Source: an uncultured Erysipelotrichaceae bacterium (GTDB lineage: Bacteria > Bacillota_I > Bacilli_A > RFN20 > CAG-826). From it: 47,969 bases of DNA. Numbering within the stretch: the stretch's first letter is position 1; each line of letters starts with the position of its first letter. The position numbers and the translations under genes were made by a program. Shown here in pieces: positions 18,928 to 46,652 of the stretch. The stretch covers positions 1-47,969 of the forward strand of contig CADCPN010000023.1 in the NCBI GenBank assembly GCA_902803375.1. The letters run 5' to 3'. Under the pieces are notes generated by a model. The model saw only the letters and a list, made by a program, of their open reading frames with translations, was not told where the DNA came from and searched no databases.

Positions 18928-19644
18928 ATGAGTTGGGACTTAATCGGATTGATCTTTACCATCATCCTCGTTCTCTTCACCGTCGTGGGCGTCATCAAAG
19001 GCTTTTTCTGGTGCTTAGGCAAATTCATCAAGCTATTTGCCTCGATCATCATCTCGACTTTCCTTTGCCATCCTATCGCCACCAGGCTTAATGCCACAGG
19101 GCTAGGCGCTACCCTCAAAGGCGGCATCGCGGATAATCTTGTTTCCAAAAGCGATGTCTTCACTCTTTCCTGCACTGCCGATAACGTCGATACGGCCCAG
19201 GCAAAGCTAAATATTCCTAATTTCTTGCGCGAGGCGATGAACAAGTACATCCTTGGCGGCAACTACGAAGGCTATGATAACGTCGCGCAGTATTTCGCCA
19301 ACGCCTTCTCTCTCATCATCCTCACCGCCATCACTTTCATCGTCTTGGTAGTCATCATCATGCTTATCGGGCTATTGCTAAGAAGGCTTGATAAGGTATT
19401 CGCCAACGTTACCGCCCTTAATGTCACTAACCGCATCCTTGGCGGCGTCGTTAACTTCGCCTTAGGCCTATGCATCGTCTGGGGAATCTGCGTCGTGCTC
19501 TCTGCCATCATCTCTATGGGCAACGGCGCTTCCTCTTGGCTAGAGACGACGATGCGGCTTAATAGCGAGCAGATAAGCTTCAGCAAGCTCTTCTATAACT
19601 ACAATCCGATCTCAAGCATCGTCTTCTCCATCTTCGGCATCTAA
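18928..19644 (+). CDS. CvpA-like membrane protein
   Basis: 238 residues with a CvpA-family pattern: an N-terminal helix (LIGLIFTIILVLFTVVGVIKGFFWCLGKFIKLFASIIISTF), a loop of about 70 residues holding few helices, then two long hydrophobic helices (LIILTAITFIVLVVIIMLIGLLLRRL, GGVVNFALGLCIVWGICVVLSAI). CvpA proteins are membrane proteins first linked to colicin V export; their molecular role is still unclear. GGGGGAG lies ahead of the ATG. It is the first gene of a nine-gene operon and, with the surface protein at 26185, one of its two membrane components. Confidence 0.75.
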   Translation: MSWDLIGLIFTIILVLFTVVGVIKGFFWCLGKFIKLFASIIISTFLCHPIATRLNATGLGATLKGGIADNLVSKSDVFTLSCTADNVDTAQAKLNIPNFLREAMNKYILGGNYEGYDNVAQYFANAFSLIILTAITFIVLVVIIMLIGLLLRRLDKVFANVTALNVTNRILGGVVNFALGLCIVWGICVVLSAIISMGNGASSWLETTMRLNSEQISFSKLFYNYNPISSIVFSIFGI

Positions 19645-19656
19645 AAGGGAAAAGAA

Positions 19657-21606
19657 ATGCCGAGTAAGGTCTCACTCTGTTTCGACTTTGGCGCCGATAC
19701 GCTGAAGATCGCCGTGGCATATGGATTGCCCGGGCAATACCATAGACTCGAGAAGGTCGCCACTCCATCGACCTCCTCTGGTTTTCCTTCTATCGCCCTT
19801 TATGACAAAGATAAAAAGACCTGGCTATTCTCCGATATCGCCTATTCCTCTTCCGATTACTCCTATATCGTTAAGATCAAGCAATTGCTTTCCCTTGTCC
19901 TAAAAGGAAAAGGCAGCAAGAACTACGACTATTACGCGAATAAGAACATCTTCCCTTATTATTGTTTCCTAGAACCGCAAGGCGCGGTCATTGAAGACTA
20001 TGATGCCCTGCTAGAAAAGAAGAACTCCAGCTTCATCGTCCCCAATATCACCCCAAGGCAAGTCTGCGGAAGATTCTTCGCCTATATCAACACGGTCGTG
20101 TTCTCATGCCTCAAGAAGAAGTCGATCTACCTCGAAAACGTGGATTATTCTTTTTGCTTCGCCACGGGCACCAACTCTTTTTTGAAGGAAGAGATCATCG
20201 CGCTAGCCAAAGAGAACTTCACCTTCGGGGAATATTCAGGCAAAGAGATCTCCGCGGAGAAGGCCATCGCCAAATACATGGCCGAATCTGGGGATGTGGA
20301 GGATAACGAATCCTTCCTCCTTTTCCAGATGGGACATGATTCCGTCTCCGTCACCAAAGTCAAATCCTTAAGCGAGGGCATCGCCGTAGACGGCGTCGAA
20401 GGGCATGAAGCCCCGCTTCATGTAGGCGGAGGCAACATCGATAGGATTCTCTATGAGCATCTTTCTTCTAGCGTGGCCAAGCATGAGACCATCGGGATGG
20501 ACGATAAAAATGCCGCCGCCTCCCATGAGGCAATGACTAGCGGGAAGCAATTCGCCTTCTTAAAAGACATCAAGCTCTGCAAAGCCATCCTCTCTGACCC
20601 GGATTTCCATGATTCCTATGTCCCCATCTCGATGGATAATAGCCTCGTGATGTCGACTTCCGTCAGCAAATCCGAGTTCGCCGAATGGCTCGGATATAAA
20701 GACATCAATAACATCAAAGCTCCAAGCTTTGCTAACCTACTCATCCGCAACTACATCGGCAAGGAGCTTGCTAAGCCTCTTAATGACAATGTCTCCTATA
20801 TCCTTCTTCTAGGCGGCAGCAGCTGCACTTTGGATTTCCCTTTGGCCGTCTCTAGATACCTAGAGAAGGAATTTCCCAATGTGAAGCTAAAAACCCGCAT
20901 TGGAGAACTCTATAAAGAGCTAGGGGATGAATGGCCTTTATATGCGGTTGCCGGCACTGGCGCCTTATTCGCCTTCAATTCCTGGAAGGTCGATACGGTC
21001 TTCTCGCTTTCTTATGGCACCTGGGTCACGCCGAGAGAGAGGGGGGATGCAAGAGGTGGCTCTGATATCTATTACCAGGAGCTATTCCCGATGAACTCCC
21101 CTGTGGAGAATGGCAGCTACATCGAAGAACGCGGCTGCTATCTCCATATGTCTCGCCCCTTCACCCTTCAGATACGCAGGGCGGTCTATGAGATGGTGCT
21201 TAGCTCCTCTTTTGATATGGACTACTTCAAAAGGTATGACGGCTGCCACAAAGATAACCACGATAGGCCGCGCATCCTCTCCAATATCGATACTAGCAAA
21301 GAGTTCCACCTAGACCATTACGCAGGCAAGATGGGCTTTAAAGAAGTGGTCGGCAGCTATGCCGCCATCTTCGATATCCAAGACACGAAGCATCACCTGG
21401 AATTCTCCAGGATGTATGACATCGGCTTCCGTTATTACCTCTTCATCTCCCCCGATGGCAGGGTGGAGATCGAATATCACCTGAATGACGTCAAAGCCCA
21501 TGGGGGCACTTCCTCACTCTCTTATGTGGAGACGAGCGATGGCAGGCGCATCCCTGTGGAAAGGCTTCGCATCGTCGCGAATGTCTCCTATAACGCGAGG
21601 GCATAA
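19657..21606 (+). CDS. Hsp70-fold ATPase-like protein with altered phosphate-2 loop
   Basis: 649 residues. The N-terminal 420 show the actin/Hsp70 plan: phosphate-1 strand CFDFGADTLKIAV (8-20), a phosphate-2 region LLFQMGHDSVSV (about 220-231), HVGGGNIDRILYEHL (about 252-266) and the adenosine motif LLLGGSSCTLDFPLAVSRYLE (about 382-402). In DnaK the phosphate-2 loop reads LVFDLGGGTFDVS; here Asp and the Gly triplet are replaced, so nucleotide turnover may be weak or lost. The last 230 residues are not a DnaK substrate-binding domain that I recognise. It could act as a nucleotide-gated scaffold or chaperone for the operon partners (inference). Twelve bases after the CvpA-like gene; weak ribosome binding site. 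Confidence 0.7.
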   Translation: MPSKVSLCFDFGADTLKIAVAYGLPGQYHRLEKVATPSTSSGFPSIALYDKDKKTWLFSDIAYSSSDYSYIVKIKQLLSLVLKGKGSKNYDYYANKNIFPYYCFLEPQGAVIEDYDALLEKKNSSFIVPNITPRQVCGRFFAYINTVVFSCLKKKSIYLENVDYSFCFATGTNSFLKEEIIALAKENFTFGEYSGKEISAEKAIAKYMAESGDVEDNESFLLFQMGHDSVSVTKVKSLSEGIAVDGVEGHEAPLHVGGGNIDRILYEHLSSSVAKHETIGMDDKNAAASHEAMTSGKQFAFLKDIKLCKAILSDPDFHDSYVPISMDNSLVMSTSVSKSEFAEWLGYKDINNIKAPSFANLLIRNYIGKELAKPLNDNVSYILLLGGSSCTLDFPLAVSRYLEKEFPNVKLKTRIGELYKELGDEWPLYAVAGTGALFAFNSWKVDTVFSLSYGTWVTPRERGDARGGSDIYYQELFPMNSPVENGSYIEERGCYLHMSRPFTLQIRRAVYEMVLSSSFDMDYFKRYDGCHKDNHDRPRILSNIDTSKEFHLDHYAGKMGFKEVVGSYAAIFDIQDTKHHLEFSRMYDIGFRYYLFISPDGRVEIEYHLNDVKAHGGTSSLSYVETSDGRRIPVERLRIVANVSYNARA

Positions 21607-21611
21607 AGACA

Positions 21612-24461
21612 ATGGCAAAAGACTCCAAAGTGAAAATCGTCGTCGATTCCTCGGCGACCGACATCGAAAACCAGAAAGCCAACCTTTCTTTTGAAAGGCG
21701 CAATTTTACCCGCACCATCGCAAGGAGTAACCACGCCGCCAACGTCCTTGATGTCCATGACTCCTTCGATGAGCTGAAGATCGATCCTTCTTTCCTCGCC
21801 CAGTCTTCTTCCACCGGCATCTATGGTATCCCCTATGACTCCGAGGTCCATCGCTTTGGCCAAGACGTCATCCTCTCCCACCAGAAAGTGGCGGCGCAGC
21901 GTTTCTTGCGCGAGCTCCGTGGCTTCGGACTTTTGGCTGATGTGGTTGGTTCAGGCAAGACATTTGAGGCGGGCCTAGTCATCTCTGAACTTTCCTTCCG
22001 CAATATGTGCCGCAGCTTATTGCTTGTTGTCCCTGACCAGGTCTTCGATACCTGGGTGGTCACGATGGAGCGCCGCTTCGGCATGGGCGATGGCGTATTG
22101 CTTCGCGCCGATGAGAATTTCCTTCTTCCTGACGTCTATAAGCAATACCTCGTCAAAGATGGCGAATTCCGTTATCTTTCCCGCCCCGTCATCGTCAAGA
22201 TGGATGACTTCGTCAAATGGGATAAGGCTATCTCAAGCCTGCTATTCGATGTCATCGTCGTCGATGAGGCCCATAACCTTTGCCTGAAGGATTCCGGGAG
22301 CGTCAACGGCCTGAAGCTTCTTTCCAGCTTCATGCAGGTGAAGAACAAGGCGGGCTATCCCTATTGCCTCCTCCTTTCCGCGACCCCCCATAACGGCAAC
22401 CTCGAGGACATGTACCCGTTATGGTATTTCATCCGCTATAAAGGCGGCGTGCCGAGCGACTTCTCTAGCGATGAATCCTTTGCCAGCCAGGAATACGTCA
22501 AAGAGAAGGCCTACTACATCGATAAGGTCTGCTATGGGGCCAAAACGGTATCCGAATTCATCGCCGCGGTGCGCCTAGTCAAAATTAAGTCTGAATATCA
22601 TGAGGCCCTTCTCTCCTATTGCCCTGACTTCGAGCAGAAGTCAATGGCGGCAAAGCTATCCAAGGCCGCGGACTTCGAGAGTAAGATGCTTAACGAGCAG
22701 CAGCGGCAATCTTTGCGCAAAGAGATTGCCGCCGCCTACCATAACGAGGTACTCCGCCCCATCATGATCCGTCAGGAGAACCATCTCCATAAGAGCAAGA
22801 AGATCGCCAATATCCTTTTCTATCCGACCTTGGAATTGCCTAGTGTCCTAGAGCTTAGCTTCCGGGGGGAGCATCTCACGGTTAACCTCACTGACTTTGG
22901 GCTAAAGAAGAAGTGCATCCATTGCGATGATGGCATTGTCGACTTCGCTACCTTCGCCTCCAATCGGGAAAAAGACACCCACCTCATCACCGATTTGCTT
23001 TTTGAGATCATTTCTAAGTTGGAGAAGGAATATGGCTCCGCCAATGCGTTCTTGGTCGCTGATCCTATCCGTTACTACAAAGAGCAGCTCTATACCTGCG
23101 CCTTCTCCGCTAATAGGTTCGGCAATGACATCACCAATGATCTCCGCCTCACCAACAAGAGGCCTATCTTCGACCTGAAGCTAGAGGAGACCAAGGCCAT
23201 TCTTAAGCAGAATAAGGGAGAGCGCATCCTTATCTTCTTCGACTATGACCTTGCGCCAAGGCAGTCATTGAAGAATAAGCTTCTCGAAGCCTTGCAAGAA
23301 GACGAAGAGCTTTCCTCTAGGCTTCTTATCGGCTCCGACAAAAACAAGACGCAGACCATCAACGCCTTTGCGGAAAAACCTGATGCTGTGTTGCTAGTCC
23401 TTGACCCTAAGTTCACCGAAGGGGCTAACCTTCAAGATTCCGCGATCATCATCAACTTCGAGATCCCCTGCGATCCCCTTTCGATGGATCAACGCATCGG
23501 ACGCATCTTCCGCCTCGGGCAAAAAGAGGACGTGAGGATCTATTCCCTCGCCGACATGACTAGCCTTGAAGGCTATGTTTTGCTCTACTTCACCGCGATC
23601 GGCATCATGGATTCCAACTCTGGCGATGCCACGATCATCGCCGGCAACAACTCCGACAAGATGCTCGTCGCGAAGTGCCCTAGTTGCGGCAGGGTCAACA
23701 TGGTCCCGAAAGACCTATATGACGAAGATAGCGAAGACGTCTATTGCTCTGCCACCCCTTCCTGCAGAAGAAATGGCGGCAAAGGCACCAAGATGGTGGA
23801 GATCTCCGTCTATAACTTCGAATGCGAGAGTTGCGGCAGAGTCCTTCAGCGCGACTTCAATGATGATTCTGGCGCTTATCGATGCCTTGCCATCAATAAT
23901 GACGGCAAGAAGGGCAAGATGTGCAATTCCGGCAAAGACGGGGACCGCGTTTTGTTCTGCAATTCTAGCTGCGCCCTAAGCCATTGTGACATCCTTGAAG
24001 AGCTGCATTGCCCACTAGCTTTCTCCTATAAAGAATATGGCATTGATTCCGACATCCAGCTTTTCGATATCTGCCGCCGCTGCAAGAACCGGAGCGAATG
24101 CCTAACTAGGGCAAGAAGGGATGGCAGCCCCTGCGCTTTCTATCACGAAGGCTTCTCTTCCGAGCCAGTTTTAGACTATAAGATCCACCAGGTGCAGAAG
24201 TGCTCCCATTGCCCCCACGCCACCTGCTCTCCTAGGCCCCACATCATCAACTTCGACGACAAATGGGAGGCGACTTGCCCCAATTGCCATGGCAAGCTAA
24301 AGAAGGTCGCCTCCGGCACCTTCAAGACCTACATCAAGAATTCCTGGAGGTTCTCCACCCATAATGCCGAGGGCGATTATTTCGTCAAAGATCTGCTGGA
24401 AGAGACCAGAAGAGCCAGCGTCATCAAAGAGATCTTGTCTCTAGATGAGGAAAAGAAATAG
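21612..24461 (+). CDS. SNF2/RapA-type helicase with C-terminal zinc clusters
   Basis: 949 residues. The SF2 core is complete: motif I DVVGSGKT (about 110-117), motif II DEAH (about 217-220), motif III LLLSATPHNG, and in the second lobe motif VI DQRIGRIFRLGQ (about 625-636), as in SNF2/RapA-type DNA translocases. From about 688 onward there are repeated Cys pairs (CPSCG, CESCG, CRRC, CSHC, CPNC) forming several likely zinc ribbons, unusual for this family. SNF2 proteins translocate on duplex DNA and remodel or strip bound proteins. The start lies five bases after the preceding stop, implying coupled translation. The function in this operon is unknown. Confidence 0.85.
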   Translation: MAKDSKVKIVVDSSATDIENQKANLSFERRNFTRTIARSNHAANVLDVHDSFDELKIDPSFLAQSSSTGIYGIPYDSEVHRFGQDVILSHQKVAAQRFLRELRGFGLLADVVGSGKTFEAGLVISELSFRNMCRSLLLVVPDQVFDTWVVTMERRFGMGDGVLLRADENFLLPDVYKQYLVKDGEFRYLSRPVIVKMDDFVKWDKAISSLLFDVIVVDEAHNLCLKDSGSVNGLKLLSSFMQVKNKAGYPYCLLLSATPHNGNLEDMYPLWYFIRYKGGVPSDFSSDESFASQEYVKEKAYYIDKVCYGAKTVSEFIAAVRLVKIKSEYHEALLSYCPDFEQKSMAAKLSKAADFESKMLNEQQRQSLRKEIAAAYHNEVLRPIMIRQENHLHKSKKIANILFYPTLELPSVLELSFRGEHLTVNLTDFGLKKKCIHCDDGIVDFATFASNREKDTHLITDLLFEIISKLEKEYGSANAFLVADPIRYYKEQLYTCAFSANRFGNDITNDLRLTNKRPIFDLKLEETKAILKQNKGERILIFFDYDLAPRQSLKNKLLEALQEDEELSSRLLIGSDKNKTQTINAFAEKPDAVLLVLDPKFTEGANLQDSAIIINFEIPCDPLSMDQRIGRIFRLGQKEDVRIYSLADMTSLEGYVLLYFTAIGIMDSNSGDATIIAGNNSDKMLVAKCPSCGRVNMVPKDLYDEDSEDVYCSATPSCRRNGGKGTKMVEISVYNFECESCGRVLQRDFNDDSGAYRCLAINNDGKKGKMCNSGKDGDRVLFCNSSCALSHCDILEELHCPLAFSYKEYGIDSDIQLFDICRRCKNRSECLTRARRDGSPCAFYHEGFSSEPVLDYKIHQVQKCSHCPHATCSPRPHIINFDDKWEATCPNCHGKLKKVASGTFKTYIKNSWRFSTHNAEGDYFVKDLLEETRRASVIKEILSLDEEKK

Positions 24462-24474
24462 GGGGAGCATAGAT

Positions 24475-26163: not shown

Positions 26164-26184
26164 AGAAAGGAGGAAAGATAAGCT

Positions 26185-29100
26185 ATGAATAACGTAAAGC
26201 GCGATCCCAGCAGGAAAGGCCGCTATGCCTTCTTGCATCTAACCGACTCCAAGGCGCCGATCTATATCTGCGTATTGCTTTCTTTGCTTTGCAACGTCAC
26301 CTTGGCCACCAAGTTTTTCCTTGGCAACTACGAAGCCTCCTATGGCGTCTATTCGGTGGTGAGTGCCCTGATCGACCTCATCTTCTTAATCCTATTCCAT
26401 TTCTCCAACATGAGGTTCCGCTACGCCTTCATCGAGGCGGTGGCTTACGCATTGATTAGCCTCCTCGCCGCTAGCGTTCCCATCGCCCTATATAACCCCT
26501 TCGCCAAAACCAATATCTTCACCACCAGCATGTCGATATTGACTATCCTCACCCACTTCGCCGCCGCAATGCTTGTCGTCATTATCGCTAGGCTTTCTGG
26601 CAAATATGAGGACAAAGGCGCCCAAAATGCCTCTTATGCCTGCGCCTCTTTGTCTTTGGTATCGCTAGGCGTATTGCTCTATTTCACTTTCTCCGCCGGC
26701 TATTTTGGCCAGGGTAATGGCAGAAACCTCATCCTTAACCGCCTTGATGATGGCAGCTATGAAGTCGTAGGCATCATCAAAGGCCCAGGAGCAAGCGTAG
26801 AGGTCAAAGACTATGGCGGCAAGAAGATCTCCGCGATCGACGCTTCTGTCTTTGCTGCCGATGACGTCTCTTCCATCCGCTTTGATAAGCATCTAGAGAT
26901 CAAAAACCCCGAGAAGCTAGATAACGCCAATCCCCTTCTTGTCGTCGAAGGAGAGTATGAGGTCATCTCCGCCTATCGGGAGGACTTCTTTAAGGAGGCC
27001 GCCATCTCCCCTTCGCCAAAAGGCGCTTTGTCTTTGGCCAATAACGTCGGCTACCTCGACGCGGAGAGATCTTTTGTCCACTTCGCCTATGATGAGGAGG
27101 CTTTCTCTACTCTATATAAGAGCAATAACTTGCTCCTTGATCTAGTCGGCGAGAAAGGCGAGGCAATGCAGCAGATGCAGGGGTATGTGGATGATTTCGA
27201 GAAGAACCCCTATGGCAAAGATTTCCTGCTAAGCGATTCTTCCATCGTCGATAGCTACCTTGCCAACAAGAAGAAGGTCCTCTATTCGGATTCTGACCTC
27301 ATTTCTTATCTAGATGGGAAGAAGCAACTATCCAAAAATGAGAGCACCCTCTCCTTTGATTTGGCCCTAAAAGACGTCTATCTCGTTTCTTTCGAAGAGA
27401 GCAACGACTCCCTTTATCCTCTTGAAAGAGGCCTCGCCAAGAATGAGGCCGCCCTTTCAAAAGGCAGATACGTGCTTGAGATTAGCCATGGTAGCGGCTT
27501 CCCATATGAAGACTATGCCCGTTTCGATATGGGTGCCCTTCTATCCGAATTCGATGGCTATGCCTCTAGAGAAGGCTTCGACTTCGCCTTTGTGAGCAAT
27601 GGCAAAAACATTACATCGCTGACCCCCTCTTCCTTCGTGGATAACAAAATCTCCTTAAAACCGACCTGGTCCATCCGCTCTCCTTCTTTTGACCTATATG
27701 ACAAAGAGAAAAACTTTCGCTACACCTATGGCGAACAAGGCCATTTCGAAGCGGTCATCGGCAAAGAGAACGTCTATGACGACGTCTTTGACTACGAGCT
27801 GTCCTGGTACCTCAATGACGAGGAAAGCCATTCCTTAAGCGATGCAATTAACTATGATTCCCGCGTCTTGCTGCCTAGCGATTCCAAAGTCTCCGTCTTT
27901 TTGCGCATCAGCTCTTCCAAGAGTTCGCTAACCGCGGTTATCCCTGTTTGCAAAACACTTTATGTCGCCAAAAAGACCTTAGGCGTAGAAGCCTTTTTGG
28001 GATCTAACGTCTATACCTCCTATGACATCAAAATGAACGTAAGCCTTTTTGGAGGCGTTGGAGACGATGATTTGTCTTGCTTCTCCTTGACGGTCACTAA
28101 CCTAGACAAATCTTCTTCCTCTACTTTTGATAACCCTATGGAGGCGAGCGTCAAAAACGCGGGCACCTATAGTCTCGCCATCACCCTTTCTAGAGAGCTT
28201 TCTAAGCTCTATGTGGTGGATGCCCGCGCCTCCTCTTCCCGTTACGTCATTAGCCGTTATGAGCTGAAAGATGCCTGGGAAGGCGCGGAAAGCTCCTTTA
28301 CCTATAACGGGCAGAAGCACTCGCCTGCCGCCAATATCGTCCCTCTTAAAGGAGATAGCCTTTCCGATGTCTTTGATCCATCTAATGGCTACCGCTATAC
28401 CCAAAACGGAGCCTCCGTTCCTTCTCCGATCCACGGAGGGGAGTACTGCGCTAGCCTCGTTTTCAAAAACGATAACTACTTTGCCTCCCCCTTCTTTTTC
28501 TCCATCCTCAAGAAAAAGGTGTTCGTGAACTATGAGCCCACGGATTCCTTCGTCTATAACGGAGAGAAGCAGTCTCCTAAAGTCGCCTCCATCGATGGCT
28601 TTCTTCCTGGAGAAGAGGTAAATATTACTTATGCCGGCACTAGCTACATCGATGTCGGCTCCTACAGAATCGTCGCTTCTTTGGCTTCTTCCGATTACGA
28701 GCTAGATAAAGATTCCGGCGTTATGGATTTCTCCATCACCCCGCTTCATCTAGACATCAAAGTCAACGATGCCTCCTCTACCTATGGAGAGATAGCCTCG
28801 CCCTTATCCTTTGCCTATATTAGCAGCGCCAAGCTTCTCGATAGAGACGGCGACTGCATCAAGCTTTATGTTGATGGCGCCTCCTTCCCTCTAGCCGAGG
28901 CGGGGGAATATGAGATCTTGGCTAGATGCCTCTCCTCTAACTATGACATTTCAGACTATCACGCTGGCGCCTATACCATCCGCAAAAGAGAGGTGGAAGC
29001 AAAGGAAGATGACAATGTCTATTTCACCTATGATGGCACCGATCAGTCCTCTTCCTTAAGCGAAAAATTCTATTTCATCGACCAGCTTGGTCAGAGACAT

Positions 29101-30015
29101 CCTTTATCCGTTGACGTCAAAAAAGAATTCAAAGATGCCGGCAATTACGCCTACACCCTTTCCTTAAAAGACTCTGACGCGAAGAACTATCTTCTCACTG
29201 GCAATCTTTCCGGCTACGTCAATATGCGAAAGAAGACGCTACCCGTCTCTTCTTCCAGCAAGAGTTTCACCTATAACGGATTAGACCAAAGTTCAGCGTT
29301 AGATGAGTATTATTTCGTCTTCATCAACGGGACGAAAATCTACTTGGAAGCCACGCCTATCGAGTCTTTTGTTAACGCAGGCGACTATCAGATCAAATTG
29401 GCGTTGCCGCTAGAGTTCTCCGCTAACTACTCCCCCTCTATCTCTTTCGCTAGAGTTTCGATATCTAAGGCCGGTATCGCCATCACTTGGGAGGACGTAA
29501 CCCTTACCTATAATGGCCTTGACCAGTCTTCCAGTATAAATGGCAAAGCGAGCTTCTCCGATGTCTTTGGCAATAAACAGCTTGTGAATGTCACCGTTGA
29601 CGCTGACGTCGTCGACGCTTCTTCCTATGTCTTCTCCGCATTGCTAAGCGAAGAGCAAGCCCAAAACTATGTCGTTTCCTCCCATAAGACCCACGCTTAT
29701 GTCATTAACCCCCTGAATGTTGACGTATTCTGGAATGAAAAGGAGTTCTACTATACCGGCGAAGTCTTGAAGATCAGCTCCCCTTTTTATGTCGATGCCT
29801 TTGGCAAACGCCAATATCTCTCCGTCACCTTCGATAAGCCCTTTAAGGAGGTGGGGACCTATGTGGCGAAGGCTAGCTTTGCTTCTGCAAAAGAGGCGCA
29901 GAACTATCGTCTGAATAACCCCACCCACGAATATCAGATACTGGAGGAAAGGCAGGAGGAGATTGCCGCCCCCAAGGCAATAAAGCCATCTTCCAAGCAG
30001 GAGGAAGAGCAATGA
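26185..30015 (+). CDS. giant membrane-anchored surface protein with MBG-like repeats
   Basis: 1276 residues. A basic N-terminus is followed by about five membrane helices (residues 25-165), which would place the remaining 1100 residues outside the cell. The outer part starts with a short segment resembling bacterial LRR_5 (GKKISAIDASVFAADDVSSI), then a large middle region. From about 690 it has some seven tandem domains marked by F(T/V)YNG, TYDGTDQSS or TYNGLDQSS and ending in DAGNY or NAGDY, the signature of MBG (mostly beta-grasp) domains of surface proteins. No LPXTG motif. AAAGGAGG supports the start. It physically links a cytosolic ATPase operon to the cell surface, an unusual combination. 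Confidence 0.7.
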   Translation: MNNVKRDPSRKGRYAFLHLTDSKAPIYICVLLSLLCNVTLATKFFLGNYEASYGVYSVVSALIDLIFLILFHFSNMRFRYAFIEAVAYALISLLAASVPIALYNPFAKTNIFTTSMSILTILTHFAAAMLVVIIARLSGKYEDKGAQNASYACASLSLVSLGVLLYFTFSAGYFGQGNGRNLILNRLDDGSYEVVGIIKGPGASVEVKDYGGKKISAIDASVFAADDVSSIRFDKHLEIKNPEKLDNANPLLVVEGEYEVISAYREDFFKEAAISPSPKGALSLANNVGYLDAERSFVHFAYDEEAFSTLYKSNNLLLDLVGEKGEAMQQMQGYVDDFEKNPYGKDFLLSDSSIVDSYLANKKKVLYSDSDLISYLDGKKQLSKNESTLSFDLALKDVYLVSFEESNDSLYPLERGLAKNEAALSKGRYVLEISHGSGFPYEDYARFDMGALLSEFDGYASREGFDFAFVSNGKNITSLTPSSFVDNKISLKPTWSIRSPSFDLYDKEKNFRYTYGEQGHFEAVIGKENVYDDVFDYELSWYLNDEESHSLSDAINYDSRVLLPSDSKVSVFLRISSSKSSLTAVIPVCKTLYVAKKTLGVEAFLGSNVYTSYDIKMNVSLFGGVGDDDLSCFSLTVTNLDKSSSSTFDNPMEASVKNAGTYSLAITLSRELSKLYVVDARASSSRYVISRYELKDAWEGAESSFTYNGQKHSPAANIVPLKGDSLSDVFDPSNGYRYTQNGASVPSPIHGGEYCASLVFKNDNYFASPFFFSILKKKVFVNYEPTDSFVYNGEKQSPKVASIDGFLPGEEVNITYAGTSYIDVGSYRIVASLASSDYELDKDSGVMDFSITPLHLDIKVNDASSTYGEIASPLSFAYISSAKLLDRDGDCIKLYVDGASFPLAEAGEYEILARCLSSNYDISDYHAGAYTIRKREVEAKEDDNVYFTYDGTDQSSSLSEKFYFIDQLGQRHPLSVDVKKEFKDAGNYAYTLSLKDSDAKNYLLTGNLSGYVNMRKKTLPVSSSSKSFTYNGLDQSSALDEYYFVFINGTKIYLEATPIESFVNAGDYQIKLALPLEFSANYSPSISFARVSISKAGIAITWEDVTLTYNGLDQSSSINGKASFSDVFGNKQLVNVTVDADVVDASSYVFSALLSEEQAQNYVVSSHKTHAYVINPLNVDVFWNEKEFYYTGEVLKISSPFYVDAFGKRQYLSVTFDKPFKEVGTYVAKASFASAKEAQNYRLNNPTHEYQILEERQEEIAAPKAIKPSSKQEEEQ

Positions 30016-31166
30016 AGAACCTACTCACCTGCAGCCATTGCCATAAGAAATACGAGGAGCCCCTTATCCTCTATGATGGCAGGCGGGCCTGCCCGAAATG
30101 CTTGGCTGTCACTAGTAACGGCAATATCGATAAGAAGGCTTTTTGCCTAAGCAAGGAGAACCATGAGCTCTACGTCAGGGCCAAGGTGCTCTATTTGCAG
30201 ACTATCCTTGCCCTAGCAAAGGCCTCCTCGGCCAACGTCTTGGAAGAAAAAGATAAGAAAAGCCTTTCCGCCGCTTTTTCCTTTGCTAGGGAATCCTATG
30301 AAGAAGGCAACCCCGCTAGCGCCATCTTGCTTAGCTATCTCTACCGTTATGGCTTACTTTGCTTCCTAGGGATCAAATATAGCGATAAAGACCGCCTTGC
30401 CCTAGCGGGAAGCTACCTCGCCCAGGTATTGGATAACCCCGTAGTCGAAGATAGGGAAGGGCTACTAGACAAAGAGCCTTATCCAAAGCTAAGGGAAGTC
30501 GCCGCCTATGAGCTAAGCGCTTTGCTACACTCCTGCAAGAAGGATGGCATCCTCTTGGAGAAGGATGCCTATAACGCCTTCGTTAGGTCGCTTCATAGCT
30601 TTGACCCCGTCTTATATGGCGATTTCGCCCCGGTTGGCGGAAGCATGAGCAGCGACTTCGCGCTATTAGAATCCATCTTCCGGGAAGATAGCAAAGGCAA
30701 CCCGATCGGAACTCTCTCTGGCATCGATCAGGCGGGGCATAGGGCGCCTTTATTGATGGTGCTACGCCTAGAGAGTAAGAACCTAGAGAAGGTGCTGGAA
30801 GAGCAGTCCATCCCCTTCTTATCGCGAATCGCGAGAAAAGGCGACTCCAGGGTCCATTGCTATCTTTTCGCAGAGCTTGGCGGCTATCGCTTTGAGCTAC
30901 ATCGCTTCCAGGAGGACCTCTCTTCCTATACCAGCGAGAAATACGTCTACCTCTGCGTGGCTAACCTTTATGGCAAGCACGAGGCGAGCTACCGCGGCGT
31001 GAATAAGATCTCCGATTATGAAGAGACTTTATCCAGTATCGTCGAGATCGCCGATAGGAAAGAGAGGAGCTATATCTTCAGCGATGACGATCTCTCTTTC
31101 TTTAAGAAGAAAGGCAGAAAATTTAGTGATAAAATAGCAGCATTGAAAGACTCGCTGCAGGGCTAA
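30012..31166 (+). CDS. zinc-ribbon protein with helical-repeat-like body
   Basis: 384 residues; ATGA overlap with the surface-protein gene. The N-terminus holds a four-Cys zinc ribbon (CSHCHKKYEEPLILYDGRRACPKC, C7 to C34 region). The remainder is largely helical, with Sel1/TPR-like spacing in AFSFARESYEEGNPASAILLSYLYRYG (about 80-120), then a mixed region I cannot place. A zinc ribbon followed by helical repeats also occurs in the protein encoded at 40561-41961. Role unknown; an adaptor within the operon complex is possible. Confidence 0.6.
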   Translation: MKNLLTCSHCHKKYEEPLILYDGRRACPKCLAVTSNGNIDKKAFCLSKENHELYVRAKVLYLQTILALAKASSANVLEEKDKKSLSAAFSFARESYEEGNPASAILLSYLYRYGLLCFLGIKYSDKDRLALAGSYLAQVLDNPVVEDREGLLDKEPYPKLREVAAYELSALLHSCKKDGILLEKDAYNAFVRSLHSFDPVLYGDFAPVGGSMSSDFALLESIFREDSKGNPIGTLSGIDQAGHRAPLLMVLRLESKNLEKVLEEQSIPFLSRIARKGDSRVHCYLFAELGGYRFELHRFQEDLSSYTSEKYVYLCVANLYGKHEASYRGVNKISDYEETLSSIVEIADRKERSYIFSDDDLSFFKKKGRKFSDKIAALKDSLQG

Positions 31167-31179
31167 GAGGAGAACATAA

Positions 31180-32622
31180 ATGGATAAATTGGAATTTGTT
31201 ACGTCGGTGCTCGACACCAACGGATTTAAGTACAACGAGAAGATCAAGAAAGCCAAAGACTATGGCTTCGATTCCCGCATGCAGGAAGGGCTGTTCGAGC
31301 AGATCGTCGACGCCCTCTATGAGAATTGCCTCTATCTCCTTAACGTTGGCCAGAGTAAGAGCCTCCTGACCCTGATTGCTTCCTTAAGCGAGGAGGCCGT
31401 CGGCCTCACCGAGAAGGGCCTCCCCGAGAAGAAACAATTGAAGTCTAGAGACAAGATCAATGGTCTCCTTTCCGAAAGCAGCAGGTATAAATATTCCCCC
31501 AAAGAAGAAGAGAAGACGGCTAAGCGCAAAGTCCAAAATGACCTCCGCGCGTTGCAGCTATTCATTAACCGCGTCCTATCCACCCCGGAAGACCATACCC
31601 CTGCCGCAATCGCCGCGGCCAAGGAGATCAAGGAGGCCGTCCTAACTCTTTCCGCCAAAGCGGAGCAAATCCATGACCATTCCTCCAAGAAAGCCTGCGA
31701 ATATGCTGCCAAGATCGAAGCACTGCTCCAGGAAGCCTGCGACGACTACTCTTCTGGCATCATCTCCACCTCTAGCATCCCGACTCTAGATAAAGTCGGC
31801 AGATTGCTCGATGAATGGCTATCCCAGGTCAAAGCCGATTATGGCTTCACCGGCAAAGTCAAATTCGGCACCACCCCCGATGGGGAGCTCTCCATCGCCA
31901 AACTCGAAAGCGATTCGGCCTATCTCACCTCACTCAATGAGCTCCGCGCCAACATCGAGATCCAGATGAAGAAGCTGGAGTCTCTTGCCGACTCTGGCAA
32001 CATCGAGGCCCATGAGAAGTCCCTTAACCTCCAAAAAGAGAGGCTAAAGACGTTGGTAATCGCCGCCAAAGCTCATCCGACCACCTCGGCGATGGATGCC
32101 ATCCATAAGCAGCAGGAGCAGGTCAAGAAGGAAGAGGTCCTGCTTCAAAAAGCCAAAGACCGCCTCTTCAAGATCCAGGCTGGGCCTAGATACCGCACCC
32201 TCCTTAACATCGTCGACCTCATCAATGACATCGCCGCCTATGCCGATAACAAGGTGGCCCTAAGCTATATCCAGAAGTACTTCGAGGTCAAAGAGGCCTA
32301 TGCCTTCGTGAACCAGACCACTGCCGACCCCAATAAGATAGAGACTCTCCTCACCAAGTGGAGAGAGGTCAAGACCATCATCGACACCGCTGAGCGGCAA
32401 GCCGACAATAACCTCGACCTTATGGATTCCCTCCTCTCCGCCGCCTTCACCGAAGAAGAAATCGCCGTTACGGAAGAAAAGGGGAAGATCAGCCAGGATA
32501 ACCTCGATGAACTTGCCGCCCTCTCCGCCGAGCTTGGCCTAGATGAGAAGGATGGCGAAGAAAAAGAAGAGCCAGCGGAAGAAGAAAAAAACGAAGAAAC
32601 CCCGATGGACGTCATCGCCTAA
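31180..32622 (+). CDS. helical coiled-coil protein with acidic tail (possible ESCRT-III-like)
   Basis: 480 residues, nearly all predicted helix and charged, with heptad-like stretches (about 240-330: LNELRANIEIQMKKLESLAD, QQEQVKKEEVLLQKAKDRL). The tail from about 450 is very acidic (EEKEEPAEEEKNEE) and ends PMDVIA. No membrane segment or enzyme motif. Helical body plus acidic tail, placed two genes before a Vps4-like AAA ATPase, is the layout of ESCRT-III-type subunits, but I see no diagnostic motif, so this is a structural guess. An alternative is a generic AAA adaptor. GAGGAG precedes the ATG. Confidence 0.55.
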   Translation: MDKLEFVTSVLDTNGFKYNEKIKKAKDYGFDSRMQEGLFEQIVDALYENCLYLLNVGQSKSLLTLIASLSEEAVGLTEKGLPEKKQLKSRDKINGLLSESSRYKYSPKEEEKTAKRKVQNDLRALQLFINRVLSTPEDHTPAAIAAAKEIKEAVLTLSAKAEQIHDHSSKKACEYAAKIEALLQEACDDYSSGIISTSSIPTLDKVGRLLDEWLSQVKADYGFTGKVKFGTTPDGELSIAKLESDSAYLTSLNELRANIEIQMKKLESLADSGNIEAHEKSLNLQKERLKTLVIAAKAHPTTSAMDAIHKQQEQVKKEEVLLQKAKDRLFKIQAGPRYRTLLNIVDLINDIAAYADNKVALSYIQKYFEVKEAYAFVNQTTADPNKIETLLTKWREVKTIIDTAERQADNNLDLMDSLLSAAFTEEEIAVTEEKGKISQDNLDELAALSAELGLDEKDGEEKEEPAEEEKNEETPMDVIA

Positions 32623-32634
32623 GGAGATAGATAT

Positions 32635-33372
32635 ATGAAAGAGAAGCAGAAAAAAGCAGAAGTCGACCCATTCGCCGCGGCCATCGCCGCTGACCAAAAG
32701 CGGGTCAACCGCCAATTCCAGAAGAAGAAGTTCGACGAAAGGCGCAATCTCCTCCATTCCCGCAAGGATGAGATTCTCCTTAAGGGCAAAGCGGCCTTAG
32801 AACGCGCCAAAGCCCGCGATCCCAAGACCTATTACAAAGACGTCAACGTCGTGATGTTCTCTCAGCTTTTCCAGCTCTGCACCGAGATGGAGGAGGCCTT
32901 GGAGATGATCGACTCCGTCAACATCGCCATGGATTACCTCACCGAAGTCATGGGTTATATCGATGACATCATGCAGTCCTGGGACCTCTCCCTCGATGAG
33001 CAGACCGCCCATTCCTATGGCCTATTCTCCAGGTGGAGGACCAGAAGGAAGATTCGCAAGGCTAGACGCAACCAGAAGGGCCGCATGAAGGTCCTCACCA
33101 TGCGCATCAAGGCGATGTTTGAGTCCGTCGGCATGATGACTAGCGGCCTCTCTTCCGCCGTGAGTGACCTCACCTACACGGTCAATAAGCCAGTGAAGAT
33201 GAAGAAAGAGAAAGTCCGCAAGAATGAGGCGACCGGCCCTAGCCCCGCCGTGGTATCCTTCGAAAGCGCGTTAGCTCTAGAAGAAGGGGCCATAGCCCCC
33301 GCCGCGAAGAAAGAAGATGGCGGAGCTAACTTGGGCGCTGCCCCCTCTAGTTCCGACATCGATAACATCTAA
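32635..33372 (+). CDS. basic-to-acidic helical protein (possible ESCRT-III-like)
   Basis: 245 residues. A strongly basic N-terminal helix (RQFQKKKFDERRNLLHSRK) leads into a helical hairpin (about 45-125: QLFQLCTEMEEALEMIDSV, AMDYLTEVMGYIDDIMQSW), a second basic stretch (RWRTRRKIRKARRNQKGR), another helix, and a disordered Ala/Glu-rich tail ending SSSDIDNI. This basic-to-acidic all-helical plan and its position directly before the AAA ATPase recall CHMP/Snf7 proteins, whose C-terminal tails bind Vps4. Homology is not shown by any clear motif; a PspA-like or unrelated coiled coil is possible. AGGAG lies before the ATG. Confidence 0.55.
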   Translation: MKEKQKKAEVDPFAAAIAADQKRVNRQFQKKKFDERRNLLHSRKDEILLKGKAALERAKARDPKTYYKDVNVVMFSQLFQLCTEMEEALEMIDSVNIAMDYLTEVMGYIDDIMQSWDLSLDEQTAHSYGLFSRWRTRRKIRKARRNQKGRMKVLTMRIKAMFESVGMMTSGLSSAVSDLTYTVNKPVKMKKEKVRKNEATGPSPAVVSFESALALEEGAIAPAAKKEDGGANLGAAPSSSDIDNI

Positions 33373-33383
33373 AGGAGCAACCC

Positions 33384-34640
33384 GTGGCAAAGCAGGAAGA
33401 GAAAAAAATATTGGATATCCGCCTGCCCGAAGTCCTTAGCCTCGATGCGGAGGCCGGAAGCGTCGCGACCAAAATCAAGGCCATGCTCGATAAGAAAAAG
33501 GCCCTGGAAGCTTCTGGCAAAACCTTATCGGAAGAGGACATCGGCGAGCTCCGCAATGGCTATACCCTTATCTATTCGATTGCCAACTCCATCATCAATA
33601 AGCTTCTTTCCGCCAGCTTCACCCTAAATGAAGACGAGACGAGGATGCTCAATACCTATAAGGCCAGAGCTGAGAACTTCTTGGCCAAATCCCGCCTCTA
33701 TGGCAGCGCCATGCGAGGCATCCCCTCCCGTACCTTCGATGATATCGCAGGCTTAGATGAGGTTAAGGAAGTCGTCGATTCCTTCGTCTATATGGCAGAG
33801 CACCCCGAACTGCTTTCCCATTACAACATGGAAGGCGGCTTGGGCTTGCTTATGTATGGCGCCCCAGGCACAGGCAAAACCATGTTTGCCGAAGCCGCGG
33901 CCAACCGCATGAAGCTTCCTTTGTTCGTGGTGACCCCCGCCGATATCTATAATTCCTACGTCGGCCAATCCGAGAAGGCCGTCAGGGACATCTTCGATGA
34001 GATGGATAACTGCCGTAGCGGCGCCGTCTTGTTCGTCGATGAATGCGAATCGATCTTCTCTAAGCGCACCGGCAACGATGAGACCTGGAAGTCTAGCGTC
34101 ACCACCGAGCTTCTCCAGAGGATGAATGGCTTTGGCAGAAATGGCTCTAGGCGCGTGCTGCTCGCCTCCACCAATAGGCCCGATAAGATCGATCCCGCCT
34201 ATCTCCGCTACAAGAGATTCACCAACCTCGTCCATGTGCCGCCCCCTGACGTGAATGCCCTTCGCGCCATCATCGAGCATAAGCTGCGCATCGGCAAGCC
34301 CGATGAGATTGAGCTCCACAACATCAGCGTCGAGCAGATCGTAGAGATGACGCAGGCCCATCCTGGCTATTATTACACCGGCGCCGACATTTCCGGCATC
34401 ATCGAGGAGGCCTGCCGCCAGGCCATCGATAAGATGATCAAGACCCGCAATGAGTCTGGGAAGTTTTTGCCGCTAGAGAGGGAATACTTCGAGAGGGCCT
34501 TTGCCAAGAAGTATCCTAGCGTCTCTAGGGCGCTTGCCGACCAATATGAGAATTTCTCCAAGCATATCGATTCCAGCGAAGCGATAGGCGAAGAGAAGAA
34601 GGCTAGCCTTGCGGAACTCTTTCACGGCGGAAATAACTAA
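33384..34640 (+). CDS. single-domain AAA ATPase (Vps4/katanin-like layout)
   Basis: 418 residues from a GTG start at 33384 (AAGGAG seven bases ahead). Residues 1-115 are helical; the last helix TYKARAENFLAKSRL resembles the third helix of MIT domains (consensus like YLDRAEKLK). The AAA core is complete: Walker A GAPGTGKT (159-166), pore loop SYVGQSEK (191-198), Walker B LFVDE (216-220), sensor-1 STNRP (262-266), and the arginine pair LRYKRF (274-279). One AAA domain behind a MIT-like bundle is the Vps4/spastin/katanin plan; FtsH- or p97-like assignments fit less well. It would pull on protein substrates as a hexamer. Last gene of the operon. Confidence 0.8.
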   Translation: MAKQEEKKILDIRLPEVLSLDAEAGSVATKIKAMLDKKKALEASGKTLSEEDIGELRNGYTLIYSIANSIINKLLSASFTLNEDETRMLNTYKARAENFLAKSRLYGSAMRGIPSRTFDDIAGLDEVKEVVDSFVYMAEHPELLSHYNMEGGLGLLMYGAPGTGKTMFAEAAANRMKLPLFVVTPADIYNSYVGQSEKAVRDIFDEMDNCRSGAVLFVDECESIFSKRTGNDETWKSSVTTELLQRMNGFGRNGSRRVLLASTNRPDKIDPAYLRYKRFTNLVHVPPPDVNALRAIIEHKLRIGKPDEIELHNISVEQIVEMTQAHPGYYYTGADISGIIEEACRQAIDKMIKTRNESGKFLPLEREYFERAFAKKYPSVSRALADQYENFSKHIDSSEAIGEEKKASLAELFHGGNN

Positions 34641-34645
34641 GACCC

Positions 34646-34680
34646 AAGCCTTGTGGATATTTTCATAAGGCTTTTATTTT
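34646..34680 (+). terminator. intrinsic terminator of the nine-gene operon
   Basis: AAGCCTTGTG (34646-34655) pairs with CATAAGGCTT (34664-34673) with one G-U pair, followed by TTATTTT. It begins six bases after the AAA ATPase stop. Confidence 0.8.
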
Positions 34681-35446: not shown

Positions 35447-35530
35447 CTATAAAGTTTAGTGTGGATTTGACCCCCCCTATAAAGTTAACTGTGGAGGGCC
35501 GCGGATCCTATAAAGTTAACTGTGGAGGGC
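35447..35530. repeat. three spaced copies of a 19-23 bp repeat
   Basis: CTATAAAGTTAACTGTGGA followed by GGGC occurs at 35477-35499 and 35508-35530. A diverged copy, CTATAAAGTTTAGTGTGGA, is at 35447-35465. The copies are 30-31 bp apart, start to start. The last copy runs into the terminator hairpin. They could be relics of insertion-sequence ends or binding sites; no coding sequence lies here. Confidence 0.75.
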
Positions 35531-35546
35531 TCATCCCTCCTTTTTT
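35524..35546 (+). terminator. intrinsic terminator
   Basis: Perfect 6 bp stem GGAGGG (35524-35529) / CCCTCC (35535-35540), five-base loop, six T. It probably ends the transcript of the zinc-ribbon membrane protein. Confidence 0.8.
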
Positions 35547-35596
35547 GTAGACCATTTTGGAATTCTCCGCCTAAAAGATAAGTGGAGGTAATTAAA

Positions 35597-35926
35597 ATGG
35601 CCAAATCCCTAACTTACCTAGTAGGCGTCATCGACAAGAACCTGGATATCCTGCATTCAAGGCTAGAGGGAGTCTCTTTGAACCGCTTCGCGGAAGATCC
35701 TTTGCTTTTGGATGCGGTGAGATTTCGGCTTGCGCAGATATTGCAGGCTGCCTTGTCAATAAAGGACAAAGACAAGGCGAAATTCCCCAACATCCAGTGG
35801 ATCAAGCTCAAGCTTATCCGTAACCACATCGTCCATTCCGCAGACAAAGTAAGCCCAGAAGAACTCTATAAGCTCGCCGTAAACGATGTCTATGAGCTGC
35901 AAAAGCAGTTAAAAGGCAACGGATGA
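35597..35926 (+). CDS. HepT-like (DUF86) protein without its MntA partner
   Basis: 109 residues from ATG 35597. GGAGGT (35584-35589) lies seven bases upstream, and the GTG at 35582 overlaps that site, so it is rejected. The helical protein ends with the HEPN/HepT-like core W-x6-RNHIVHS (R75-x4-H80), the RNase motif of HepT toxins. In classical HepT the motif is RX4-6HXY, and the Tyr is the AMPylation target of the MntA antitoxin. Here the Tyr position is Ala (HSA), and no MntA nucleotidyltransferase is adjacent. It may be a solitary HEPN nuclease, an orphan, or a non-toxic relative. Terminators on both sides isolate it as a single-gene unit. Confidence 0.7.
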   Translation: MAKSLTYLVGVIDKNLDILHSRLEGVSLNRFAEDPLLLDAVRFRLAQILQAALSIKDKDKAKFPNIQWIKLKLIRNHIVHSADKVSPEELYKLAVNDVYELQKQLKGNG

Positions 35927-38716: not shown

Positions 38717-38753
38717 AATATTCCCACAAATTTAATATTGTTTTGTGGGATTA
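38717..38753. repeat. 37 bp hairpin repeat, copy downstream of fic
   Basis: Begins AATATTCCCACA and ends TTTTGTGGGATTA. TCCCACAAA (38722-38730) pairs with TTTGTGGGA (38742-38750). It includes the Fic stop codon, and on the minus strand may serve as terminator. It shares outer ends and exact length with the copy at 39813-39849. Confidence 0.75.
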
Positions 38754-39797: not shown

Positions 39798-39812
39798 TCC
39801 CGTAATCCTCCT

Positions 39813-39849
39813 AATATTCCCACAGATCATACCACTTTTTGTGGGATTA
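39813..39849. repeat. 37 bp hairpin repeat, copy upstream of fic
   Basis: Same length and ends as 38717-38753 (AATATTCCCACA ... TTTTGTGGGATTA) with a different centre. TCCCACA (39818-39824) pairs with TGTGGGA (39840-39846). It lies directly before the Fic ribosome binding site and may act as operator, or with its partner as a cassette boundary. Confidence 0.75.
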
Positions 39850-46639: not shown

Positions 46640-46652
46640 AATAGAAGACAAA

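What the first reader, a model, noticed from the sequence alone, without database searches (positions are those of the whole stretch)
18928..34640. Nine-gene operon joining CvpA-like, Hsp70-like, SNF2 helicase, surface MBG protein and Vps4-like ATPase
Nine co-directional genes with 5-22 base gaps or overlaps run from one promoter to one terminator. They combine three different NTPase classes (Hsp70 fold, SF2/SNF2, AAA), two membrane proteins (one with a 1.1 kb-residue surface part), several zinc-cluster proteins and helical charged proteins. The spacing and terminator are seen in sequence; the families are from known motifs; that they form one machine is inference. I know no described defence, secretion or stress system with this gene set.
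Basis: partly seen in the sequence, partly recalled or inferred. Interest (0 to 1): 0.88.

Follow-up and report, generated by a model that had tools for sequence, protein, structure and literature searches.

The report
Conserved uncharacterised eight-gene bacterial cassette
A block of eight genes, kept in one order in scattered uncultured bacteria (several from animal guts), joins a large, probably outside-facing membrane protein to a DNA-type motor, a chaperone-like ATPase and a protein-remodelling ring; I found no description of such a set, and its job is still unknown.

Summary
Nine + strand genes (18928-34640) lie with gaps of -17 to +21 bases and end in a supported terminator. The three NTPase classes are right: Hsp70-like by profile-profile comparison, SNF2 and AAA by Pfam.

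It is a conserved cassette. In 18 genomes of Bacilli and Clostridia g2 (Hsp70-like) lies directly before g3 (SNF2); as far as those contigs were read, g4 to g9 follow in the same order. Over the same 392 genomes, g2 and g4 hit the same 4 (plus one short broken g2 fragment). Distances of g2, g3, g4 and g9 correlate at r 0.81-0.95. CvpA (g1) occurs in 2 of 18. Nine loci have an SF1 helicase beside g8.

New here: g8 ends in a conserved acidic-hydrophobic tail after a variable linker (14 of 15, against 17 of 308 controls), a candidate address for the neighbouring AAA.

No library used names the set. Best guess: an envelope-anchored, NTP-driven machine acting on DNA, perhaps defence; but its neighbours do not look like defence islands. 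Function is unproven.

The parts
18928..19644 (+). g1: CvpA-like membrane protein, 238 aa; local addition, found beside the cassette in 2 of 18 genomes
   Evidence: PF02674 46.8 bits over cut-off 29.3; present only in window and L019
19657..21606 (+). g2: Hsp70-like ATPase, 649 aa; nucleotide-binding domain about residues 1-440, then about 200 residues without a match
   Evidence: hhalign to six DnaKs prob 97.1, E 6.6e-11, 359 columns; five control alignments 0.0-0.6; family invariants
21612..24461 (+). g3: SNF2-family ATPase with a Cys-rich C-terminal part, 949 aa; motifs DVVGSGKT, DEAH and QRIGRIFR present
   Evidence: PF00176, PF00271 over cut-off; nearest named models DrmD, BrxHI, DpdE and RapA, far under the NCBIfam cut-offs where given; motifs
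24445..26163 (+). g4: zinc-cluster protein of unknown fold, 572 aa; conserved GAxWF..LR and YH..YS motifs
   Evidence: alignment A7; AF2 pLDDT 71.5; no Foldseek match at E <= 0.001
26185..30015 (+). g5: 5 predicted membrane helices and about 1100 residues with MBG beta-sandwich domains, probably outside
   Evidence: MBG_2 36.3 bits over cut-off 25, MBG_2 in 6 of 9 members; helices by hydropathy
30012..31166 (+). g6: zinc ribbon, Sel1-like repeats and an unknown C-terminal domain with an invariant DD pair, 384 aa
   Evidence: alignment A8; profile against PDB Sel1 repeat proteins E 2.7e-4
31180..32622 (+). g7: charged helical protein with acidic C-terminal tail, 480 aa
   Evidence: profile members in 10 genomes; tails; no family over cut-off
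32635..33372 (+). g8: three-long-helix protein, variable linker, conserved C-terminal tail (here SDIDNI), 245 aa
   Evidence: AF2 pLDDT 64.8, helices 12-61, 70-123, 130-183; tail [DN][IL] in last five residues in 14 of 15 members against 17 of 308 control ORFs
33384..34640 (+). g9: AAA ATPase of the Cdc48/Vps4/CdvC kind with a short helical N-terminal part, 418 aa
   Evidence: PF00004 108.8 bits; best PDB matches Cdc48/p97; Vps4_C near cut-off in other members
34646..34673 (+). intrinsic terminator closing the operon
   Evidence: 12-pair stem and T-rich tail; -15.7 kcal/mol, z -2.95

Best explanation
Shown: a discrete, co-inherited cassette of eight core genes (g2-g9), with an optional metallopeptidase-like gene and SF1-helicase gene, and a local CvpA gene. 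Inferred: it builds an envelope-anchored, NTP-driven machine that carries a signal from the cell surface to DNA. The MBG protein g5 stands in the membrane and meets something outside. The Hsp70-like g2 acts as an ATP-dependent conformational switch. g7 and g8 form a helical scaffold on the inner face. The AAA ring g9 grips the exposed g8 tail (in some genomes perhaps g7 too) and pulls the scaffold apart or remodels it, resetting or firing the assembly. The SNF2 motor g3, with zinc adaptors g4 and g6, acts on double-stranded DNA; in extended loci the helicase, probably with a nuclease domain, adds DNA cutting. The most likely use is defence against incoming DNA sensed at the envelope, which would work like Zorya without being related to it.
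For: Conserved order as far as contigs were read, and marker co-occurrence; g9 in 16 of 18 genomes, on the same contig as g3 in 11 of these; correlated distances, 0 of 5000 permutations as high; g3 nearest to helicases of DISARM, BREX and Dpd systems; an SF1 helicase beside g8 in 9 loci; its nuclease domain (MTES_1575) was scanned in one of them only, G254, and is weak there (E 0.035, 14.6 bits against 38.2), but G254 aligns across that region with the L019 upstream helicase, which is over the cut-off (44.8); patchy presence, 2 of 31 genus genomes; g8 tail; likely surface topology of g5; Zorya as precedent for a membrane complex coupled to a DNA effector (abstract of PMC11890865).
Against: Flanking genes look mostly like housekeeping: PADLOC matches at E <= 1e-10 among 83 flanking ORFs were PDC-S01 (up to 4 ORFs), dGTPase and mad3 (2 each) and single hits, with no restriction or CRISPR model. 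No PADLOC match for g2 or g4-g8. The window's compact locus has no recognised nuclease. No plasmid or phage record matched the SNF2 protein over 80% of its length. The link between the g8 tail and g9 is position and conservation only; the g7 tail fits in 2 of 10. The g8 fold match is not discriminating.
Confidence: 0.36

Rival explanations
1. An ESCRT/PSP-like membrane-remodelling or envelope-stress device: g7 and g8 polymerise on the membrane, g9 disassembles them through the C-terminal tail, g5 senses the envelope, and g2/g3 link it to nucleoid or transcription.
For: AAA of the Cdc48/CdvC/Vps4 kind; three-helix g8 with tail; Vps4-like AAA genes in bacteria beside a TPR + 6TM protein are reported, section 18 of PMC11237479 (passages).
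Against: No Snf7 or PspA among the 25 families shown of 64 for 22 g7/g8 members; no MIT among 40 PDB matches of the g9 N-part profile; Vps4_C just under cut-off in the six members listed; in the passages of PMC11237479 that I read no SNF2 motor is part of such a set, and the word SNF2 does not occur in that paper.
Confidence: 0.22
2. A surface adhesion or host-interaction system: g5 is an adhesin whose making, folding or phase control uses the cytoplasmic ATPases.
For: g5 is the most variable protein of the cassette in one pair (36.6% against 79.3% for g9, L024/L028) and varies in length, 1000-1549 aa; MBG domains; several hosts come from guts.
Against: A DNA motor, an Hsp70-like switch and an AAA are not needed for an adhesin; no cell-wall anchor motif seen by eye in the window g5; in the window/L019 pair g6, g7 and g8 diverge as much as g5.
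Confidence: 0.2
3. A DNA uptake or transfer apparatus: surface protein and SNF2 and SF1 motors move or trim DNA across the envelope.
For: Surface protein together with two DNA-motor families.
Against: No channel, pilus or relaxase match among the nine window proteins; no SF1 helicase between g7 and g8 in 6 of 15 loci where that place was read, though L019, one of the six, has one upstream of g1.
Confidence: 0.1
4. No machine: neighbouring genes that share a promoter but not a function.
For: None found.
Against: Order kept between genomes whose g3 proteins are mostly 30-55% identical to the window's or to the other Bacilli members'; same 4 of 392 genomes.
Confidence: 0.04

Closest known systems
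DISARM (DrmD) and other SNF2-bearing defence systems (BREX BrxHI/BrxHII, Dpd DpdE)
   Same: SNF2-family motor of the same broad group (DrmD E 6.4e-33, BrxHI E 1.1e-31); multi-gene operon
   Different: Scores far below the NCBIfam cut-offs (114 against 610); no methyltransferase, DrmA/B/C, PglZ or BrxC match in g1-g2 and g4-g9; contains an Hsp70-like protein, an AAA and a surface protein. The DISARM-like L088 shares only the SNF2 protein by my profiles. A 2026 BREX survey (PMC12839542, passages) does not hold the words Hsp70 or Vps4
Zorya
   Same: Membrane complex facing outward plus DNA-acting effectors (abstract of PMC11890865), with the SNF2 protein ZorD in type I (model names)
   Different: No PADLOC match for g1 or g5, so no ZorA/ZorB; MBG surface domain instead; AAA and Hsp70-like proteins added
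ESCRT-III/Vps4, CdvBC and PSP
   Same: Vps4/CdvC/Cdc48-like AAA next to helical proteins, one with a conserved C-terminal tail
   Different: Partners show no Snf7/PspA match in what was listed; MIT and Vps4_C domains not established; DNA motor present
CoCoNuTs and GTPase-centric conflict systems with Hsp70 (PMC11090510, PMC7159879; passages)
   Same: Hsp70-like ATPases, zinc ribbons and SNF2 or Vsr-type domains recur in large conflict operons
   Different: No McrBC, TerY-P, MoxR-vWA or TRAFAC GTPase match among the nine proteins
IetAS
   Same: AAA g9 has a PADLOC IetA match, E 1.8e-31
   Different: 103.8 bits against a cut-off of 510 for the NCBIfam model; no subtilisin-like match among the cassette's Pfam hits

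Membership tests
Hsp70/actin-like ATPases | Hsp70 nucleotide-binding domain | tested here: met
   hhalign 97.1%, 359 columns against six DnaKs; five controls 0.0-0.6%. Weaker tests: no Pfam hit for the single sequence at E <= 0.1; family profile against PDB gives SSB1 and DnaK first but only at E 0.11-0.46. So it is a remote relative
Hsp70/actin-like ATPases | intact phosphate-2 Asp | tested here: inconclusive
   family consensus LIFDMGEED, but the window reads LFQMGHDS
DISARM | SNF2 protein over the DrmD cut-off | tested here: not met
   114.1 against 610 and 90.1 against 950 bits
DISARM | methyltransferase, DrmA, DrmB and DrmC partners | tested here: not met
   no PADLOC or Pfam match to these among the other eight window proteins; g3 itself cross-matches a DrmA helicase model
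BREX / Dpd | PglZ, BrxC or DpdA-type partners | tested here: not met
   no such matches among the nine window proteins
Zorya | ZorA and ZorB motor proteins | tested here: not met
   no PADLOC match at E <= 0.1 for g1 or g5
Vps4 / ESCRT | Vps4_C oligomerisation domain on the AAA | tested here: inconclusive
   7 of 8 members match at E <= 5, best 6.5e-5, 6 of 10 at E <= 0.005, 17.3-21.2 bits, all just under the cut-off of 21.3; window member E 0.14, 12.6 bits
Vps4 / ESCRT | N-terminal MIT domain | tested here: inconclusive
   about 110 residues at the right place, helical by eye; no MIT chain named among 40 PDB matches up to E 10; no structure predicted
Vps4 / ESCRT or PSP | Snf7- or PspA-type partner | tested here: inconclusive
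   none among the 25 of 64 families shown for 22 g7/g8 members; g8 model matches many three-helix bundles
Vps4 / ESCRT | AAA binds partner tails | not testable with these tools
   needs binding assay or complex prediction
CvpA | PF02674 | tested here: met
   g1 46.8 bits against 29.3
IetAS | AAA over the IetA/IteA cut-off and a subtilisin-like partner | tested here: not met
   103.8 against 510 bits; no peptidase S8 match among g1-g9

The most novel reading that the evidence does not exclude
A new class of bacterial machine in which an outward-facing beta-sandwich sensor is coupled, through an Hsp70-like switch and a scaffold that a Vps4/Cdc48-like AAA ring recognises by a C-terminal tail, to a SNF2 motor on DNA: ESCRT-style tail-addressed disassembly used to pass a surface signal to the genome, possibly as an immune system of gut Bacillota.
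Probability: 0.25. Interest if true: 0.92.

Novelty: categorically new. Interest (0 to 1): 0.72.

Why it matters
If the reading is right, bacteria have an undescribed way to link events at the cell surface to motors on DNA, built from three NTPase families that I have not found described together. The g8 tail and the neighbouring AAA give a short, directly testable handle on how it works, and the g2 and g4 profiles make the system easy to find in metagenomes.

Tried and rejected
Fold of g8: AF2 model of low confidence (pLDDT 64.8). Foldseek gave nothing at E <= 0.001, with BAR domains and other coiled coils among the first. VIA-align gave Z up to 11.2 to TBK1, Alix V and BAR proteins alike, which that tool's own note calls a common arrangement. 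I do not claim BAR, ESCRT-III or PspA.

Fold of g4: pLDDT 71.5, no Foldseek match at E <= 0.001; first hits were TCR/MHC-type chains at E 0.2 and up with TM (query) under 0.1, which I discard.

Defence-island test: 83 flanking ORFs (of 84 listed; one small one left out) from 9 of the 15 loci and from G254 and G413 were scanned. PADLOC at E <= 1e-10 gave 20 models: PDC-S01 in up to 4 ORFs, dGTPase and mad3 in 2, the rest in 1 each. Pfam showed 25 of 91 families, with HD, tRNA synthetase, TsaD, ABC and the like, and 2 phage integrases that I did not place. The window flanks and four genus relatives (38 of 40 listed ORFs; plsX and one small ORF left out) gave SoFic, mad3, PDC-S01, PDC-S04 and PDC-S24. 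I call this no defence island; it is a judgement on partial lists.

Mobility: viral contigs gave 6 SNF2 relatives at E 4e-18 or weaker and 3 weak AAA matches; plasmids and phages gave no SNF2 match over 80% of the query; g2 of L021 had no plasmid match. The AAA of L025 matched 1396 plasmid records, 31 of them over 80% of the query, all under 60% identity, as expected for a general AAA. Horizontal transfer between Bacilli and Clostridia: the g3 tree splits the Bacilli rows, but the AU test is borderline (p 0.043) and long branches are present. I leave it open.

SF1 helicase in the own genome: the nearest protein, 2048 aa on contig C5, is close to the helicase upstream of L019 (38% over 803 residues), so that upstream gene may be a general genus family and not part of the cassette.

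g7 tail: the same kind of tail stands in L024 and L025 (QINDII, QITDIV), but only 2 of 10 meet the test, and g7 and g8 are not detectably homologous (hhalign 0.8%). The first tail pattern (11 of 15 g8, 4 of 308 controls, 0 of 103 tails of other cassette genes) and the simpler one were both written after seeing the tails. With the simpler one other families score g2 2 of 18, g9 1 of 7, x1 1 of 5, the two x5-labelled helicases 2 of 2, and 0 in g1, g3, g4, g5, g6.

Sixty-five distant SNF2 loci and nine viral loci: no g2 or g4-g8 profile match at E <= 1e-4; one AAA match at L097, two weak ones on viral contigs and one SF1 match at L061.

A slip, mended: the DnaK alignment held six DnaKs and one wrong ORF (from L111); without it the result is slightly stronger, and I quote.

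Paper searches: nine. None of the listings or passages that I saw describes this gene set. The library lacks most subscription journals. No paper was read whole: passages of PMC11237479, PMC7159879, PMC11090510, PMC12839542 and PMC3710099, outline and abstract of PMC11890865.


Full report
Check of the observation. A 12-pair stem with a T-rich tail follows at 34646-34673; 2 of 200 shuffles fold at least as well. A promoter is not shown by the scan. Pfam confirms CvpA for g1, SNF2/Helicase_C for g3, MBG_2 for g5 and AAA for g9. For g2 no library gives a name, and its family profile reaches PDB DnaK/SSB1 only at E 0.11-0.46. Profile-profile comparison with six DnaKs aligns 359 columns at 97.1% probability, while five other alignments of the cassette score 0.0-0.6% (one search is an earlier run with one wrong row). 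The own genome has a normal DnaK on contig C31, so g2 is an extra, remote member of the fold.

The cassette is real and conserved. Fifteen of these score E <= 6e-81 and the next is at 1e-17. With the window and the G413 and G254 loci this makes 18 genomes; L019 is the G044 contig, counted once. g2 lies directly before g3 in 18 of 18. g4 follows in 17 and g5 in 16; L033 ends in g3 and L032 in g4. g6 is seen in 11 and g7 in 10; in G413 a 514-aa ORF fills the g7 place without a profile match. The others end, or were fetched only, before these genes.

g9 is found in 13 of the 15 genomes at E <= 1e-60 and in the window, G413 and G254, thus 16 of 18. It was not found at that level in G466 (L030) and G469 (L033). 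It lies on the same contig as g3 in 11 of the 16 (window, G413, G254 and, by equal contig lengths, L019, L020, L023, L024, L025, L026, L028, L029); in five (L021, L022, L027, L031, L032) it is on another contig, so linkage to g3 is not shown there. g8 stands next to g9 in 15 of the 16; the L032 genome's g9 contig ends before it. Of 65 distant SNF2 loci none has a g2 or g4-g8 profile match.

Co-occurrence and co-inheritance. Over 392 genomes of the phylum g2 hits five, one of them a 68-residue fragment with stops, and g4 hits four; the four are the same genomes. In the genus g4 occurs in 2 of 31 genomes, so the cassette is accessory there. Pairwise distances of g2, g3, g4 and g9 (15 to 17 genomes per pair) correlate at r 0.81-0.95, and 0 of 5000 permutations reach this. 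By record titles the 15 members are Bacilli (1), Acholeplasmatales (1), Christensenellaceae (1) and Clostridia (12, one of them Candidatus Protoclostridium stercorigallinarum); titles name horse faeces, goat caecum and rumen for three, and no source for most others.

Two forms. In nine loci an SF1-helicase gene stands just before g8: G254, G413 and seven of the g9 loci; four of these seven are on contigs apart from g3. Only the G254 protein was scanned: AAA_11/AAA_12 over cut-off, a weak MTES_1575 nuclease match, 14.6 against 38.2. It aligns through residue 810 of the L019 upstream helicase, whose MTES_1575 match (712-805) is over the cut-off at 44.8. In five of the nine loci a protein of about 640-660 aa (where complete) follows g7 or its place; four of the five show HExxH (HESYH, HESFH or HECYH), and the fifth, L020, is cut short. 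Six loci, the window's among them, have no helicase between g7 and g8. On the g3 tree the two forms need two changes. CvpA is beside the cassette only in the window and L019.

Anatomy. g5 has five hydropathy peaks in its first 170 residues and then a long C-terminal part; 8 of 11 members show five peaks there and three show another number. MBG_2 is detected in 6 of 9. g3, g4 and g6 carry conserved cysteines. g6 has Sel1-like repeats. g7 and g8 are helical and charged. g8 has a conserved helical core, a linker that does not align, and a tail such as INIDDIV, DISDIL or SDIDNI: [DN][IL] within the last five residues in 14 of 15 members against 17 of 308 control ORFs. Other families score 0 to 2 each (listed under Tried and rejected). 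The pattern was chosen after seeing the tails and some members are close relatives, so the contrast, not a probability, is the result. A short motif kept at the end of a variable linker, beside an AAA gene, is what a substrate address for that AAA would look like. That last step is inference.

What it does. The parts speak for a chain from surface to DNA: membrane protein, ATP switches, SNF2 motor, in nine loci a further helicase. The named models nearest to g3 are largely from defence systems, with RapA beside them, and MTES_1575/DUF3320 proteins are described in a study of conflict systems (passages of PMC3710099). Zorya shows that a membrane complex coupled to DNA effectors can be a defence (abstract of PMC11890865). 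Against this, the surroundings look mostly like housekeeping genes, no mobile element was found to carry the set, and the window's locus has no recognised nuclease. I therefore put defence-type surveillance first at 0.36, an ESCRT/PSP-like envelope device at 0.22 and an adhesion system at 0.20.

Setting in the window. In six genus relatives that lack g4, plsX (35966-37003) is followed on its right side by relatives of the genes at 40561 and 41962 in 6 of 6, at 43710 in 4 (two contigs end) and at 37103 in 3. The genes on its other side, where the cassette lies, had no match of their own in the stretches read, up to 14 kb. The cassette thus seems to sit at the edge of a variable region.

Comparison with what is known. 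No PADLOC model hits g2 or g4-g8. g3 and g9 match helicase and AAA models but stay far below the NCBIfam cut-offs for DrmD, DpdE, RapA, CdvC, CDC48 and IteA. The Vps4 label is partly supported: Vps4_C matches sit near the cut-off, and MIT was not detected. A published survey reports Vps4-like genes moved into bacteria beside a TPR/6TM protein (section 18 of PMC11237479, passages), the nearest published parallel that I found. Nine paper searches found no description of this set; the library is partial. I rate the system categorically new as a gene set, with its function open.

Noticed in passing
window 38751-39830 (-): Fic protein with a PADLOC SoFic match, E 7e-39; it lies between 37103 and 40561, whose relatives are direct neighbours in G081.
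   Followed up: partly
window 35582-35926 (+): Small 114-aa ORF with RNHIVH, which by recall looks like a HEPN-type RNase motif; not tested by any search as such.
   Followed up: no
window 35447-35535: The words 'cctataaagttaactgtggagggc' stand twice and a third similar copy lies just before, just downstream of the ORF that follows the cassette; maybe a remnant of a mobile element.
   Followed up: no
window 16152-17741 (+): One ORF joins an N-terminal membrane part to what reads by eye as a ribokinase-like sugar kinase.
   Followed up: no
window 46596-47969 (+): Sel1-repeat protein running off the contig end (Pfam Sel1 E 2e-30); it was drawn in by the g6 profile, probably through its repeats.
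   Followed up: partly
L088 2232-16259: DISARM-like cluster (methylases, helicases, SNF2; system name by eye) in an Erysipelotrichaceae MAG, useful as an outgroup for g3.
   Followed up: partly
L097 7071-8993: AAA protein matching the g9 profile (E 4e-30) near a distant SNF2 gene in a Methylomonas MAG.
   Followed up: no
L012 10958-14004: Two related 451- and 565-aa ORFs directly upstream of the G254 cassette; the second reads by eye as one membrane helix and repeats.
   Followed up: no
L129 8383-14529 (-): 2048-aa relative of the L019 upstream SF1 helicase in the window's own genome, contig C5.
   Followed up: partly
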